From: Porticoccaceae bacterium
GTDB taxonomy: Bacteria; Pseudomonadota; Gammaproteobacteria; Pseudomonadales; Porticoccaceae
Assembly (NCBI GenBank): GCA_017858135.1
Contig: JAFMBY010000017.1
Location: forward strand, 1-37,051
DNA length: 37,051 nt
Direction: 5' to 3'
In this document: positions 11,369 to 22,750 of the stretch, one piece after another
Position numbering within the stretch: position 1 is the stretch's first letter
Layout of the letters: every line of letters begins with the position of its first letter
The notes under the pieces: generated by a model
Seen by the model: only the letters and a program-made list of their open reading frames with translations
What the model was told of the DNA's origin: nothing
Databases searched by the model: none
Position numbers and translations under genes: made by a program

Positions 11369-11782
11369 GTGGATTTTTTCATCTTTGTCAGCGAACAATG
11401 GCTACTCATCTCTTTGCTGATCGCCTTGATCGGTGTGTTTTTATTCACCGAGCAGGGCAAAAGTGGTAAATCAATAAGCCCGGCCGAACTGGTTCGCTTG
11501 ATGAACAGCGAAGAAGCTGTAGTCGTCGATGTACGCAACGCTGGGGAGTTTGAAAGCGGCCATATTCACGGCTCGAGAAATATACCGCACGGCAAGCTAG
11601 CCAGCCGGATTACTGAGCTGGAGAAGTTCCGCAGCAAAATTATTGTGGTGGTCGATAAAATTGGCCAGCACTCAGGTGGCGTAGGCAAAACACTTACCAA
11701 AGAGAGTTATGATGTCCGGCGCCTTGGCGGTGGAATCAGCGAGTGGCAGGGCGCAAGCCTGCCACTTGTCTCAGGCAAATAA
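11369..11782 (+). CDS. yibN: YibN-like membrane rhodanese-fold protein, Cys lost
   Basis: 137 aa: one N-terminal membrane helix (about 10-26) then a rhodanese domain (about 37-133) with VVDVRNAGEFESGHIHGSRNIP-type pattern. The active-site loop reads VVVDKIGQHSGG: Asp96 stands where the catalytic Cys should be, so sulfur transfer by the usual persulfide route looks impossible. The position in the yibN-grxC-secB order, conserved in gammaproteobacteria, makes orthology to YibN likely; E. coli YibN has been linked to the Sec/YidC insertion machinery. The start is GTG at 11369 with GGAA about 8 nt upstream. It is likely the first gene of the operon. Confidence 0.87.
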   Translation: MDFFIFVSEQWLLISLLIALIGVFLFTEQGKSGKSISPAELVRLMNSEEAVVVDVRNAGEFESGHIHGSRNIPHGKLASRITELEKFRSKIIVVVDKIGQHSGGVGKTLTKESYDVRRLGGGISEWQGASLPLVSGK

Positions 11783-16168: not shown

Positions 16169-17575
16169 TTACACGCTGTAGTACATATCAAACTCAACCG
16201 GATGAGTAGTGTGCTCAACGCGGTAAACTTCTTCCATCTTCAGATCAATGTAGGCATCGATCATATCATCGGTAAATACACCACCAGCTGTCAGATACTC
16301 ACGATCAGTATTCAGCGCATCCAGCGCTTCACGCAAGCTGCCAGCAACCTGAGGAATGGCCGCAGCTTCTTCAGCAGGAAGATCATAAAGATCTTTGTCC
16401 GCTGCATCGCCAGGGTGCATCTTGTGCTTAATACCGTCCAAACCAGCCATCAGCATTGAAGCAAACATCAGGTATGGATTTGCAGTTGGATCACCAAAGC
16501 GGACTTCTACACGCTTGCCACGTGGGCTAGCAACGTATGGAATACGGATTGCAGCAGAACGGTTGCGCGCTGAATAAGCCAGCATTACCGGCGCTTCAAA
16601 GCCCGGAATCAAACGCTTATAAGAGTTAGTCGACGCATTGGCAAAGGCATTGAGTGACTTAGCATGTTTGATGATACCGCCAATGTAGTACAGAGCGGTT
16701 TCGCTCAGACCGGCATAGGCATCACCAGCAAATTGGTTGTCGCCGTCTTTCGAGAAAGACATGTGGCAGTGCATACCAGAACCATTGTCACCAACAATTG
16801 GCTTAGGCATAAAAGTAGCTGTCTTGCCATAGGCGTGAGCAACGTTATGCACACAGTACTTGAGGATCTGAACCTGATCAGCTTTCTTCACTAGAGTGTC
16901 AAATCGAACCCCAATCTCGCACTGACCAGCGGTGCCTACTTCATGGTGATGCACTTCAATCTCTAGGTCCATCTGCTCCATAGCATTACACATGGCAGCA
17001 CGCAGATCATGCAGACTATCAACCGGTGGCACAGGGAAGTAACCGCCCTTAACGCCTGGACGATGACCCATGTTGCCATCAGGGAACACACTACCTGAAG
17101 ACCAGGCTGCTTCGTCAGAGTTGATCTTGTAAAACGCGCCACTCATGTCGACGCCCCATTTGATGTCGTCAAACACAAAGAACTCAGGCTCTGGGCCAAA
17201 GTAAGCGGTGTCCCCTAGGCCAGTAGAGTTCAGGTATTGCTCCGCACGCTGAGCGATAGAGCGTGGATCGCGCTCATAGCCCTGCATCGTTGAAGGCTCA
17301 ACGACGCCACAGCGGATAATAACGGTTGGCTCATCGGTGAAGGGATCGAGAACAGCAGTGCTATCATCTGGCATCAAAATCATGTCGGACTCGTTAATGC
17401 CTTTCCAACCAGCGATGGAAGATCCATCGAACATTTTTCCTTCGACGAAAAAGTCATCACCAACTTCACCGATGGGGATCGAAACATGCTGTTCTTTGCC
17501 TTTGGTATCAGTGAATCGAAGATCAACCCAGCGGGCTTCGCTTTCTTTAATAAGATTTAAAGTCTTCTCAGACAT
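16169..17575 (-). CDS. glnA: Glutamine synthetase type I
   Basis: 468-aa GSI-beta, full length. It makes glutamine from glutamate, ammonia and ATP as a dodecamer. Signatures include [17 protein letters not shown] (49-65), the metal-ligand region [10 protein letters not shown] (127-136), [14 protein letters not shown] (209-222), the ATP/Glu-binding [10 protein letters not shown] (264-273) and NRSAAIRIP. The adenylylation site is kept: Tyr397 in DLYDLP, so GlnE control is expected. ATG 17575 has a strong GGAGG 5-6 nt upstream. Transcription is predicted from a sigma-54 promoter about 146-161 nt upstream with two NtrC sites behind it, and it ends at a strong terminator. Confidence 0.98.
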
Positions 17576-17889: not shown

Positions 17890-18080
17890 TTTATTCGCGA
17901 TATTTTTGATGAGGCGTGCCGTTCGCCATCAGTATAATGCTATTAAGGGTTTTTTCTGCCATTCTTTCTGGCGTACTTGGTAATTATTTGAGCCAGTAAA
18001 GTACCTCAAACTCATCGGCAGCAAAAATCTACGCGCCAGCCTTGTGAGCACATCATGTTAAATACGTTAGGAACCGATTA

Positions 18081-18353
18081 ATGGCCAGCATTGATAACGT
18101 CTCTCTGCCAAATACCGATGATATTATTATCGATGTGCGCCATCCGGATGAAGCTGAGCAGCGCCCATTAACTTGCACAGCCAATAAAATCCTCTCTCTG
18201 CCATTTTTCAATATCACACAACGACTCGGCGAGCTGGACAAACAGCAGTCTTACTTACTTTATTGCGAGAAGGGGATTATGAGCCGCATCCATGCCGACA
18301 CAATGGTGAAAAACGGTTTTAAGAAGATCGGGGTCTTCGCCCCTGATTCATAG
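18081..18353 (+). CDS. Stand-alone ThiI-type rhodanese domain
   Basis: 90-aa single rhodanese domain. Its pattern, DDIIIDVRHPDEAEQRPL (13-30), ILSLPFFNITQRLGELD and LLYCEKGIMSRIHAD (59-73), is that of the C-terminal domain of ThiI, including the catalytic Cys62 (ThiI Cys456 in E. coli) in CEKGIMS. The THUMP and PP-loop domains needed for tRNA 4-thiouridine synthesis are absent. In Pseudomonas full-length thiI lies between glnA and typA, which is exactly this place. In Salmonella the rhodanese domain alone is reported to suffice for the thiazole part of thiamine, so a thiamine role is plausible. ATG 18081 has AGGAA 8 nt upstream, and the frame is intact, so it looks like a working gene rather than debris. 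Confidence 0.85.
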   Translation: MASIDNVSLPNTDDIIIDVRHPDEAEQRPLTCTANKILSLPFFNITQRLGELDKQQSYLLYCEKGIMSRIHADTMVKNGFKKIGVFAPDS

Positions 18354-18495
18354 CCAAAGTTAAGCCATCCACGCGAAAATTGTGACCTTATTCTCATTAT
18401 TTGAGCTGATTAGTCGCCATTCTTACCGAGAAGCGTCTATATTTAGCACTTAGCCTCCGTTTTGTCCAACCAAAATCTGCCGCAGGATGCAGCCG

Positions 18496-20868
18496 ATGAT
18501 GAGCACTGAAAATTTGCTCGGGGAATTCAAGGAAGTAGAGAATTCCAGTCCCCGCTCCCTAAAAAGATCGATCCAGATCGAACTGGAAAGACATGTTTTA
18601 AAAAATCTCGGACTCGGACTGACTATTTCGCTTGTCGGCGCCCTGCTTATCTTTTTTTTCGCCGCCAATAAAAATCCAACCATCGAGCACTGGGCATGGC
18701 TCGCGGCAGTGTCCCTATCAAGCCTCGCTATCTGGTTCTGGTCATCGCGGCTTGTTCGCGACACAACACCTAACCCTCCGCGGCCACGGGCCATTATCAT
18801 CACCTCATCGCTCAGTTTTGCAATCCTTTATGGGGCCGTGGCAGTACTCTTTATTAAACCCCAGCAAATTGAAACCTCAGCACTGGTTGCTATCACCGTG
18901 ATCACCGCCGCATACGCCTGGCCGCTGACTTATGCACTGACAAGCGAGTTCCGCCATCTTTTTCTCAGCCTGATTTACGCGCCGCTTTTAGTCAGTCTTT
19001 ATCGCTATTATCCGACGATGAACTTAGGTTTTTTCGCGCTGTTGCCACTGGCCTATCTGATATTACATCGAAATCTGATCAGTCAGAGAAGGGTGTTTAG
19101 CGACGCTACAGGTACTATGCTCAAGGCAAACGAACACTCGGAGCAAGTCATCGCGACGAGTCAAAAAATCTCCAGCCTAATCGAGCAAACGCCCCTCGGA
19201 TTTATTGAATGGGACCAGCAGCGTGAGATTGTCAGCTGGAATCCCGCGGCAACAACAATTTTCGGCTACACCAAAGAAGAGACTCTCGGGCGCACAACGG
19301 ACTTTTTATTTGATCCGCAAAAAAGCTTCCTGCTGCAGCAAGTCGAAAACGATCTGTTCCTGTTTGGCAAAGACTTCACCGGCACAGCGGACAATATCAC
19401 TCGAGACGGGACGGTGATTATTTGCGAGTGGAACAATACACCACTGTTTGATGAGGCCATGAATGTGGTCGGCGCAGCCTCTTTTGTCGAAGATGTCACT
19501 GATCGAGTCAAGCTGGAAACACGCATCAAACAGCAGGCCTATTTTGATCCATTGACCGGACTACCCAATCGCCATCGCCTGATGGAAGAACTAAGTCGGG
19601 TAATCGCCCTCGCTCAGCGCAGTCAAAATTTCTGTTCGCTGCTGTTTATCGATCTCGACCACTTCAAAGAGATCAATGATACTCGCGGCCACCATTATGG
19701 CGATCTCGCTCTGACAATGTTTGCCCAGCGTCTGCGCAAGATCATTCGAACCGAGGAGGCCGTCGCGCGCCTGGGGGGTGATGAATTTGTCGTGCTGCTT
19801 GAAAATCTCGGAGCAGAAGAAGAACCGTCGCGCATGCAAATAGCTCAGGTCGCGGAAAAGATTATTGATGCCGCCCGTGAGCCCTTTATCATTAAAGATG
19901 AAAAATTTCGCATCAGCTGTAGCATCGGCATCGTGCTTTTTAACGATGGCAGCTCCGATGGTGAGTCCATACTCCAGCAGGCCGACAAGGCGCTCTACAC
20001 AATCAAGCGCGAGGGCAAGTCTAATTACTACTTTCACAACCAAAAGCTACCCTCGGAGCTGCAGCTACAGGCTACCCTGCTAGAACAACTGCGCAACAAG
20101 GCCAACAACAAATCGTTTTTGCCCTATTATCAACCTATTCTCGACACCAAGACTAACCTGATCAACGGCCTGCAAGTACTTTTGCGCTGGAAAAATCCAG
20201 ATAATGAGTTAGTCGCCGCCAGTGAAATTATTGCGCTTCTCGAATCAGGTTCAATGATCGTGGATATATCGCTGACACTGCTGGAACAGATCTTCCGCCA
20301 AGTCGATCTGTGGCGAAATCAGGATTTGTGGCGAGATGATCAGCGTATCTATTTCACATTGAGTTTGCGTGAGCTGGAACATCCGTCATTCGTGGCCAAT
20401 ATTGAAACATTGCTCCATGAGCACTCGATCAACCCGCAGACGCTGGTTTTCACTGTTCATACTGAGACGCTGCCGAAGATCCACACCCCGATGTCACAGC
20501 AACTCAATGGCCTCAAGGACATGGGTATTAGTTTTATCGTCGACAATGTCGGCTACCAGAGCCTGCCAATTCAGAAATTACGTGAATTTGAAATCGATAC
20601 TATTCGAATCTCGCACAAATTAATGGCTGAATGTCCCTTCATGGAGAGTTCGTGGAATTTGGTGAAAGGATTGATTGAACTGGCTAAATCTGTCGGTCTC
20701 AGGTGCATCGCTCCCTGCGTTGAGGAGTCCGAAATACACCATCTGTTACTCAATACTGGGTGCCAATTATTACAGGGAAACCTAATAGCCCCGCCCTCAC
20801 CAGCCACCGCAATTACAAGAATGCTTATTGAGCGCACGGTGCATAGTAAAGAGGAATCGCTCGCCTAA
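18496..20868 (+). CDS. PAS-GGDEF-EAL protein; active GGDEF, degenerate EAL
   Basis: About 790 aa membrane c-di-GMP protein. Counting from an in-frame ATG at 18487: N-terminal membrane part (about 38-195, five or six helices), PAS (about 228-345), GGDEF (about 350-515), EAL-like domain (about 530-780). The active-site GGDEF at 430-434 is intact in RLGGDEFVVLL, but the inhibitory I-site is RTEE, not RxxD. The EAL domain is broken: QVL replaces EAL (563-565), and the NLS, ES, DDFG and AEGVE-type motifs read TLSLRE, HTE, VDNVG and APCVE. Diguanylate cyclase without phosphodiesterase activity is predicted. The start is probably ATG 18496 or 18499, with AGGA 8 nt before the first. It ends 70 nt before typA. 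Confidence 0.88.
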   Translation: MMSTENLLGEFKEVENSSPRSLKRSIQIELERHVLKNLGLGLTISLVGALLIFFFAANKNPTIEHWAWLAAVSLSSLAIWFWSSRLVRDTTPNPPRPRAIIITSSLSFAILYGAVAVLFIKPQQIETSALVAITVITAAYAWPLTYALTSEFRHLFLSLIYAPLLVSLYRYYPTMNLGFFALLPLAYLILHRNLISQRRVFSDATGTMLKANEHSEQVIATSQKISSLIEQTPLGFIEWDQQREIVSWNPAATTIFGYTKEETLGRTTDFLFDPQKSFLLQQVENDLFLFGKDFTGTADNITRDGTVIICEWNNTPLFDEAMNVVGAASFVEDVTDRVKLETRIKQQAYFDPLTGLPNRHRLMEELSRVIALAQRSQNFCSLLFIDLDHFKEINDTRGHHYGDLALTMFAQRLRKIIRTEEAVARLGGDEFVVLLENLGAEEEPSRMQIAQVAEKIIDAAREPFIIKDEKFRISCSIGIVLFNDGSSDGESILQQADKALYTIKREGKSNYYFHNQKLPSELQLQATLLEQLRNKANNKSFLPYYQPILDTKTNLINGLQVLLRWKNPDNELVAASEIIALLESGSMIVDISLTLLEQIFRQVDLWRNQDLWRDDQRIYFTLSLRELEHPSFVANIETLLHEHSINPQTLVFTVHTETLPKIHTPMSQQLNGLKDMGISFIVDNVGYQSLPIQKLREFEIDTIRISHKLMAECPFMESSWNLVKGLIELAKSVGLRCIAPCVEESEIHHLLLNTGCQLLQGNLIAPPSPATAITRMLIERTVHSKEESLA

Positions 20869-20908: not shown

Positions 20909-20938
20909 CGCGACCTTTTGCCCCTACTGGTACCCCTC

Positions 20939-22750
20939 ATGTCCATTGAAAACCTGCGGAACATCGCAATCATCGCTCACGTTGACCACGGTAAGACCAC
21001 TCTGGTTGATAAACTTCTCAGTCAATCAGGAACCCTCGATCGCAAAGATGTGGGCTCAGAGCGATTAATGGACTCCAACGACCAGGAAAAAGAGCGCGGC
21101 ATTACCATTCTGGCAAAAAATACTGCCATCAATTGGAATGACTACCGCATCAATATTGTCGACACCCCTGGTCACGCTGACTTTGGTGGCGAAGTAGAGC
21201 GCGTGCTGTCGATGGTCGACTCGGTATTATTGCTGGTCGATGCAGTCGACGGGCCAATGCCGCAGACCCGCTTTGTTACCTCCAAGGCTTTCGAGCAAGG
21301 GTTACGTCCAATTGTTGTTATCAACAAAGTCGACCGCCCTGGCGCTCGACCCGACTGGGTTATGGATCAGGTCTTTGACCTGTTTGACAACCTCGGCGCA
21401 ACCGATGAGCAACTCGACTTTCCTGTTATTTACGCATCAGCGCTGAACGGCATAGCAGGCCTCGATGTCGACAACATGGCAGAAGACATGACGCCGCTGT
21501 ATGAAATGATCGTCAATGACGTGCCCGCGCCAAAAGTTGACGTGGATGGTCCATTCCAGATGCAGGTATCAGCACTCGCCTACGACAGCTATGTTGGCGT
21601 TATCGGCGTTGGTCGCATCACTCGCGGCAAACTCAAGCCCGGCCAGCAGGTCATTGTTAAATCTGCCGACGGCAAAGAGCGCAAGGGCAAGGTCCTCAAT
21701 GTGAAAGGGTATCTCGGACTCGAGCAGATCGAAACACAACTGGCTGGTGCCGGCGATATTGTCTGCATTAACGGTATTGATGGCCTGAGCATTTCGGACA
21801 CACTGTGCGATCCAGAGCACGTCGAAGCACTGCCAGCCCTGAGCGTTGATGAGCCCACTGTCAGCATGACCTTTATCGTCAATGATTCACCATTTGCCGG
21901 ACTCGAGGGCAAATATGTCACAACGCGAAATATCAAAGACCGTCTCGATCAGGAGCTGATTCACAACGTCGCTCTGCGCGTGGCGCCTGGCGACACACCG
22001 GATAAGTTTATAGTCTCTGGCCGCGGCGAATTGCACCTGTCAGTTTTAATTGAAACTATGCGCCGCGAAGGATTCGAGATGGGTGTATCGCGCCCGGAAG
22101 TCGTCCAGAGAATTGTCGACGGTAAAGTTCATGAGCCGTTTGAGCAGGTTGTGATCGACGTCGAAGAACAGCATCAAGGTGCAGTAATGGAAGAGCTTGG
22201 CATGCGTAAAGCCGAGCTAACTAATATGGAGCCGGACGGCAAAGGTCGCGTACGACTGGAATTTGTTATGCCGTCTCGCGGGTTAATTGGATTCCGTGGC
22301 GCGTTTCTGACCCTGACGTCAGGCTCAGGCATTATGACCAGTATCTTTGATCACTATGGTCCCGCCAAAGAGGGTGAAAACCACTCACGCAAAAACGGCG
22401 TGTTGATCAGCATGGTAAAAGGTAAAACGGCAGCTTATGCCCTGTTTAACATTCAGGCTCGCGGTCGTCTATTCTTAGGTCATGCGATCGATATTTACGA
22501 GGGCCAAGTAGTTGGCATTCACTCGCGCAACAATGATCTAGTGGTCAACCCGATTAAGGGCAAGCAGCTGACCAACGTGCGCGCCTCGGGAACAGACGAG
22601 GCATTAACACTAGTGCCGCCGATCAAGCACACGCTTGAGCAGGCACTGGAGTTTATTGAAGACGATGAGCTGGTAGAAGTCACTCCTCACAGCATCCGTA
22701 TTCGCAAGAAATTGCTCACTGAAAATGAGCGCAAACGCGCGCCTAAATAA
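20939..22750 (+). CDS. typA: Ribosome-associated GTPase TypA/BipA
   Basis: 603-aa translational GTPase related to EF-G and LepA. The G domain (about 1-200) has AHVDHGKT (13-20), the switch region [25 protein letters not shown], and NKVD for guanine. Then come the beta-barrel domain II, the EF-G-like domains III and V, and the BipA-specific C-terminal domain that ends in [20 protein letters not shown]-type sequence. It binds ribosomes, helps large-subunit assembly and is needed at low temperature or under stress. An upstream TTG (20918) is in frame, but [16 protein letters not shown] is the usual N-terminus, so ATG 20939 is used. No Shine-Dalgarno sequence is visible before it. It is flanked by two GGDEF genes on the same strand. 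Confidence 0.97.

What the first reader, a model, noticed from the sequence alone, without database searches (positions are those of the whole stretch)
18081..18353. ThiI reduced to its rhodanese domain at the ancestral thiI locus
Seen: an intact 90-codon gene with good ribosome site, reading exactly like the last 80-90 residues of ThiI with the active Cys62, and no THUMP or PP-loop domain nearby. Known: Pseudomonas has full-length thiI between typA and glnA, and the Salmonella rhodanese domain alone supports thiazole synthesis. Inference: this lineage dropped the tRNA 4-thiouridine function and kept the thiamine sulfur-carrier function as a separate small protein.
Basis: partly seen in the sequence, partly recalled or inferred. 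Interest (0 to 1): 0.75.

Follow-up and report, generated by a model that had tools for sequence, protein, structure and literature searches.

The report
Orphan ThiI rhodanese domain
A group of marine bacteria has dropped most of the enzyme ThiI and kept only its small sulfur-carrying end, although nearly all sampled members also lack the vitamin B1 genes that this end is known to serve, so it probably carries sulfur to something else, perhaps the molybdenum cofactor.

Summary
Window 18081-18353 is an intact 90-aa gene scoring 99 bits to the ThiI C-terminal rhodanese model (cut-off 70), at the place between glnA and typA where related genera have full-length thiI. No ThiI THUMP/PP-loop part is found over cut-off in this genome or in any of the 50 genomes of its genus searched. 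The reading frame is under purifying selection and the active Cys is kept in 42 of 42 copies read.

The inference that it was kept for thiamine is not supported. No ThiG or ThiC is found in this genome or in 48 of the 50; no Thi4 in 70 of 70 genomes. Two genus members have a thi operon that looks re-acquired.

So the domain outlived both known jobs of ThiI. My best explanation is a persulfide relay from IscS to MoaD/MoeB in molybdenum-cofactor synthesis. MoaD is the only ThiS/MoaD-type protein found here. MoeB is tail-less in 35 of 35 readable cases with the stand-alone domain. A lineage that lost the domain has a different moa operon whose MoeB ends in a rhodanese domain. Genome size confounds part of this correlation, and G068 contradicts it. 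Confidence in the acceptor is moderate.

The parts
18081..18353 (+). stand-alone ThiI C-terminal rhodanese domain (90 aa)
   Evidence: TIGR04271 99 bits; synteny; AF2 model pLDDT 90.7, rhodanese domains on top in the PDB fold search
18264..18287 (+). active-site loop CEKGIMSR, Cys62 = TGC at 18264-18266
   Evidence: Cys in 27 of 27 aligned and in 42 of 42 stand-alone loops read
18069..18072 (+). Shine-Dalgarno-like AGGA
   Evidence: read from the sequence
16169..17575 (-). glnA (GSI), left boundary of the ancestral thiI locus
   Evidence: ORF; conserved neighbour; gene name from my reading of the translation
18487..20868 (+). GGDEF/EAL-type gene between the rhodanese gene and typA; neighbour only, not found there in part of the genus
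   Evidence: ORF; tblastn; family named from reading the translation
20918..22750 (+). typA, right boundary of the ancestral thiI locus
   Evidence: ORF; conserved neighbour; gene name from reading the translation

Best explanation
The gene encodes the ThiI C-terminal rhodanese domain as a free, single-domain persulfide carrier. Shown: it is the end of ThiI by sequence and locus, intact and under purifying selection in a lineage where no s4U-making part of ThiI and, with two exceptions, no thiazole synthase is found. Inferred: IscS loads Cys62 with a persulfide, as it does Cys456 of ThiI. Inferred and least certain: the acceptor is the MoaD C-terminus adenylated by MoeB, giving MoaD thiocarboxylate for molybdopterin. 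It would act in trans to a tail-less MoeB, as the fused rhodanese tail of MOCS3/MoeBR acts in cis.
For: Identity and locus. Selection: pN<pS in 820 of 820 pairs of 41 genus genes; median omega 0.23 over the 95 pairs with 0.1<dS<1.5. No thiamine partner. IscS present. MoaD is the only ThiS/MoaD-family hit in G000, beside moaC, moaE, mobA, a 249-aa ThiF-family MoeB, a MoaB-like gene, moeA and moaA. Of the genomes with the stand-alone domain, 35 of 35 with a complete MoeB in the fetched stretch have it without tail, 242-259 aa from match start to stop (three of the 35 have a broken or contig-edge copy of the domain; G023 and G040 had no complete MoeB to read). G004, where glnA and typA are adjacent with no rhodanese gene, has a different moa operon whose 343-aa MoeB ends in a rhodanese-like domain; its sister G009 has the same operon, MoeB cut by the contig end. 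Correlated-evolution test on the tree: domain vs native MoCo LR 19.6, p 5.6e-5; with any MoaD counted and the MoeB tail ignored LR 19.1, p 7.1e-5. Controls: ThiG LR 3.0, p 0.22; TusE LR 2.4, p 0.31. Precedent, from passages read: in E. coli the separate rhodanese YnjE is described as mediator between IscS and MoaD/MoeB (PMC3227635); in humans the MOCS3 tail is the direct donor (PMC5372717).
Against: G068 has native MoCo genes with tail-less MoeB but no ThiI rhodanese; its GSII and typA genes are adjacent. G004 and G009 do without the stand-alone domain, and G009's MoeB tail was not seen. G035 keeps a diverged domain but no MoaD was found (90% complete). Seven more genomes with the domain have no MoaD (two of them only ThiS), all 74-82% complete. 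Genome size alone also correlates with the domain (LR 14.3, p 7.8e-4); with small genomes removed the MoCo link weakens to LR 6.6, p 0.037, resting on four empty-locus genomes of one clade. The tests used a FastTree tree of 66 genomes, an assumed root state and chi-square p-values. The Pfam score of the G004 tail is 19.8 bits, below the gathering score 22.2. G057 has both full ThiI and a tailed MoeB. In E. coli TusA is reported to feed MoaD, and TusE is present here; TusA was not searched. The gene is not beside the moa genes (contigs C99 and C56). The domain evolves faster than in full-length ThiI (median distance ratio to NtrB 1.68 vs 1.11).
Confidence: 0.42

Rival explanations
1. The domain is a functional stand-alone persulfide carrier or sulfurtransferase, but for another acceptor (a tRNA thiolase, Fe-S machinery, sulfane-sulfur homeostasis or an unknown partner).
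Against: Correlation with MoCo and the MoeB-rhodanese swap. TusE is found in 62 of 70 genomes including G000, so there is no sign that the Tus relay is replaced.
Confidence: 0.42
2. One reading: retained for thiazole (thiamine) synthesis.
For: The rhodanese domain of Salmonella ThiI is stated to be necessary and sufficient for thiazole synthesis (review PMC5372745, passage); G001 and G036 have thiS and thiG and could use it.
Against: No ThiG or ThiC in 48 of 50 genus genomes including G000; no Thi4 in 70 of 70. The G001/G036 ThiG groups with G059, G069 and two other order members, not with G063, the nearest ThiG-bearing relative on the tree; without re-gain 10 separate losses are needed.
Confidence: 0.06
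3. It still serves s4U synthesis in trans with an unrecognised PP-loop enzyme.
For: The rhodanese Cys normally feeds s4U synthesis (PMC5372745).
Against: No ThiI-like protein over cut-off in 50 of 50 genus genomes; hits below cut-off score at most 32.8 bits, mostly in frames of 363-407 aa.
Confidence: 0.04
4. A relic decaying slowly after truncation.
For: Faster evolution than in full-length ThiI; five genus genomes with an empty locus, all with assemblies of 1.2-1.4 Mb; frame broken in G016; active-site Arg changed to His in G035 and G043.
Against: pN<pS in 820 of 820 pairs; found in 44 of 50 genus genomes, three of these copies broken or cut by a contig end; Cys in 42 of 42.
Confidence: 0.06

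Closest known systems
ThiI C-terminal rhodanese domain (TIGR04271), E. coli/Salmonella ThiI
   Same: Same domain family, same locus as full-length thiI in the family, same Cys-containing loop
   Different: No THUMP/PP-loop part; no ThiG partner found in 48 of 50 genus genomes
Rhodanese tail of MOCS3 / MoeBR / MoeZR
   Same: Proposed job: persulfide donor to an adenylated MoaD-type protein; G004 has a fused tail instead
   Different: Here a separate protein of ThiI descent; MoeB has no tail; activity untested
YnjE of E. coli (separate rhodanese between IscS and MoaD/MoeB)
   Same: A separate rhodanese in the same proposed step (described in PMC3227635, passage)
   Different: This protein is a ThiI domain; no sequence comparison with YnjE was run
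GlpE / PspE single-domain rhodaneses
   Same: Single-domain rhodanese fold
   Different: Far below their curated cut-offs: PspE 13.9 of 102 bits, GlpE 12.3 of 102

Membership tests
TIGR04271 ThiI_C_thiazole domain | Score over the curated cut-off | tested here: met
   99 bits, cut-off 70
TIGR04271 ThiI_C_thiazole domain | Active-site Cys in the CxxGxMSR-type loop | tested here: met
   CEKGIMSR in the window; Cys in 42 of 42 stand-alone copies read
TIGR04271 ThiI_C_thiazole domain | Thiazole pathway partners ThiS/ThiG present (for the function in the family's name) | tested here: not met
   ThiG in 2 of 50 genus genomes, not G000; ThiC the same two
ThiI tRNA sulfurtransferase (TIGR00342) | THUMP and PP-loop domains | tested here: not met
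   0 of 50 genus genomes over cut-off
ThiI tRNA sulfurtransferase (TIGR00342) | s4U in tRNA | not testable with these tools
   needs tRNA analysis
MOCS3/MoeBR-type MoaD sulfurase | Rhodanese domain fused to a MoeB/E1 domain | tested here: not met
   90-aa single domain; MoeB 249 aa without tail
MOCS3/MoeBR-type MoaD sulfurase | Gives sulfur to MoaD | not testable with these tools
   only indirect genome correlation
GlpE/PspE rhodaneses | Score over curated cut-offs | tested here: not met
   12.3 and 13.9 bits, cut-offs 102

The most novel reading that the evidence does not exclude
The rhodanese domain of ThiI has a third, unrecognised job, sulfur delivery to MoaD, that is older than the truncation. 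When this lineage lost s4U and thiazole synthesis, that job alone kept the domain alive, in effect a MOCS3 split into two genes, and a MoeB with its own rhodanese tail can take over from it. Full-length ThiI in other gammaproteobacteria may then do it too.
Probability: 0.3. Interest if true: 0.78.

Novelty: new variant of a known kind. Interest (0 to 1): 0.62.

Why it matters
A domain that survives as its own gene where neither of the two pathways it is known for can be found points to another function. ThiI is a textbook two-pathway protein, so this is a natural experiment: a genus in which what else the rhodanese domain does can be studied without s4U or thiazole synthesis in the way. It also warns against reading a ThiI rhodanese gene as evidence of thiamine synthesis in plankton genomes.

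Tried and rejected
Thiamine retention: tested with ThiG, ThiC, ThiS/MoaD-family and Thi4 searches and rejected for this genome. Replacement of the Tus relay: TusE is found in G000 and 62 of 70 genomes, so not pursued. A split ThiI elsewhere: none over cut-off. Thiamine or molybdenum riboswitch at the gene: no Rfam match in the window at gathering scores. Wider occurrence: of 370 class genomes (G000 among them), 16 had a match at E<=1e-10; G000's frame is 101 aa, the others' 369 aa or more. In the order, a 180-aa frame with a sub-cut-off match (G071) was not followed up.

Papers. Search listings: no hits; no hits. Passages read: PMC5372745, PMC12442306, PMC5372717, PMC11417400, PMC3227635, PMC1779556. 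The Salmonella paper (PMC3165671) is not held and was seen only as cited. None of these searches listed a paper on a stand-alone ThiI rhodanese in this group; the library holds open-licence papers only and I read no paper whole.

Rows dropped before counts. Selection test: 41 genus sequences; G016 (frame broken), G049 and G032 (contig ends) and G061 (other genus) left out. Tree: 66 of 70 genomes; G046, G048, G067 and G069 are missing. Trait tests: 9 genomes without a MoaD hit and under 85% complete set to missing; with all absences taken LR 17.8, p 1.4e-4. In one search I coded G004, G009 and G057 as without native MoCo because of the MoeB tail (for G009 inferred from its sister), a choice made after seeing G004; one search repeats the test without that choice. 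Sizes for the size control are rounded table values divided by completeness.

Full report
What is there. ORF 18081-18353 (+) encodes 90 aa and scores 99 bits to TIGR04271, the ThiI C-terminal thiazole domain (cut-off 70), the next family being at 17 bits; Pfam gives Rhodanese, 27.4 bits. The AF2 model from 27 relatives has pLDDT 90.7, and the best PDB fold matches are rhodanese domains.

No rest of ThiI found. The own genome (2.44 Mb, 139 contigs, 96.5% complete) has this one match over the cut-off. The full-ThiI model TIGR00342 is over cut-off in 13 of 70 genomes searched, all 13 in other genera of the family, and in 0 of 50 of this genus.

A state shared by the genus. Of 50 genus genomes, 43 including this one give a match at E<=1e-8 and G032 has a fragment at a contig end, so 44; three of these copies are broken or cut (G016, G032, G049). 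Five (G004, G007, G009, G013, G034) have glnA and typA as neighbours with no rhodanese match between; G048 is unresolved because typA was not found. Where the fetched stretch reaches both sides, the genus copies lie between glnA (or a GSII gene) and typA, as full-length thiI does in other genera of the family. G061, of another genus, also has a stand-alone copy, with GSII on one side but typA on another contig. On a tree of NtrB, NtrC and TypA pieces G061 is sister to the genus (FastTree local support 0.98 for the pair, 0.79 for the genus), so one truncation suffices. In 370 genomes drawn from the class, 16 had a match and only G000's was a short frame.

Names. The named collection returned contigs of the same length as genus contigs, labelled uncultured Pseudomonadales bacterium, Porticoccaceae bacterium and, for one (G047), 'gamma proteobacterium HTCC2207'. 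That HTCC2207 belongs to the SAR92 clade is recalled, not from a call.

Constraint. Nei-Gojobori counts on 41 genus genes: pN<pS in 820 of 820 pairs; median omega 0.23, maximum 0.63, over the 95 pairs with 0.1<dS<1.5. The Cys is kept in 42 of 42 stand-alone loops read; G035 and G043 have His in place of the loop Arg. Against full constraint: the domain diverges faster relative to NtrB than in full-length ThiI, 1.68 against 1.11 (medians over 703 and 45 pairs).

Not for thiamine. ThiG: 10 of 70 genomes, in the genus 2 of 50 (G001, G036), not G000. ThiC: 11 of 70, the same two in the genus. Thi4: 0 of 70. In the genus the only ThiS/MoaD-family hits outside moa loci are those beside thiG in G001 and G036. 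In G001 the order is thiC-thiO-thiS-thiG-thiD/E (ThiG, the rest); in G036 a TPP riboswitch lies upstream of the thi genes. The G001 ThiG is nearest, of those compared, to G036, then G069 (76%) and G059 (74%), with G063 at 68%, and it groups with G069, G059 and two other order members (ultrafast bootstrap 97 for the split). G001 and G036 are nested with G044, where no ThiG was found; without re-gain 10 losses would be needed. I read this as re-acquisition, with moderate support.

What remains to be served. IscS is present in G000 (711 bits), TusE too. The one ThiS/MoaD-family protein of G000 is MoaD-like (45 bits, below the moaD model cut-off of 66; ends in GG) beside moaC, moaE, mobA, a ThiF-family MoeB, a MoaB-like gene, moeA and moaA.

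MoCo link. I fetched the places of the MoaD-family hits outside thi operons and read MoeB where the stretch held it. In 35 of 35 genomes with a stand-alone domain and a complete MoeB, MoeB is 242-259 aa from match start to stop. G004 has another operon, 33-47% identical to the native one where matched, with a neighbouring MoaB-like gene at 59%, and a 343-aa MoeB ending in a rhodanese-like domain (Pfam 19.8 bits, gathering 22.2); G009 has the same operon, MoeB cut at the contig end. G057 has full ThiI and also a tailed MoeB. Of the 10 genomes with an empty locus, 7 have no MoaD-family hit, 2 have the other operon, 1 (G068) has native MoCo. A two-trait model on the tree favours dependence between domain and native MoCo (LR 19.6, p 5.6e-5; both 47, domain only 2, MoCo only 1, neither 7, missing 9); counting any MoaD, LR 19.1, p 7.1e-5 (48, 1, 3, 5, missing 9). 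Controls: ThiG p 0.22, TusE p 0.31; but genome size itself p 7.8e-4, and with small genomes removed the MoCo link falls to p 0.037, resting on one clade. So the link is in the data but partly confounded.

Mechanism. From passages of reviews and papers: IscS passes sulfur to Cys456 in the ThiI rhodanese domain (PMC5372745); in humans the MOCS3 rhodanese tail gives sulfur to the MoaD homolog, and in E. coli IscS with TusA does (PMC5372717); YnjE, a separate rhodanese, is described as mediator in E. coli (PMC3227635). I propose that the freed ThiI domain plays that part here. Persulfide loading and the acceptor are inferred, not shown.

Verdict. Observation confirmed; the part of the interpretation about the lost s4U enzyme holds; the thiamine part does not. 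The domain is a selected, stand-alone descendant of ThiI whose job is probably neither of ThiI's two; MoCo sulfur delivery is the leading candidate.

Noticed in passing
L055, L057, L065, L070, L073, L074, L080, L083, L090 (start regions shown): In part of the genus the codon at the place of the ATG start of the stand-alone gene is ATC or ATT, in several cases after a Shine-Dalgarno-like stretch; AUC/AUU start codons are possible but unproven, and some have a GTG or TTG elsewhere.
   Followed up: partly
L051:2541-3551 (-) and the same place in 10 other fetched genus loci, in G061, G058 and G068: The GSI glnA beside ntrBC is replaced in place by a GSII-like glutamine synthetase of 336 aa (81-99% identical to the L051 copy).
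   Followed up: partly
L260:2417-6911: G004 (and G009, L261) carry a different moa operon, with a MoeB-rhodanese fusion read in G004, in place of the native cluster seen in the other genus genomes with MoaD.
   Followed up: yes
L103:32-5519 and L104: A thi operon in only 2 of 50 genus genomes, apparently re-acquired.
   Followed up: partly
window 18487-20868: The GGDEF/EAL-type gene between the rhodanese gene and typA is not found there in the loci with GSII and in several others, and is in pieces in some.
   Followed up: no
L061:4101-4371: In G016 the rhodanese gene is split over two frames; sequencing error or real decay cannot be told.
   Followed up: no
window 11369-11782; L002:1441-1773: Two other rhodanese-like proteins in the same genome, one with an apparent membrane anchor near a glutaredoxin-like and a SecB-like gene, one with an apparent signal peptide (named from reading).
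   Followed up: no
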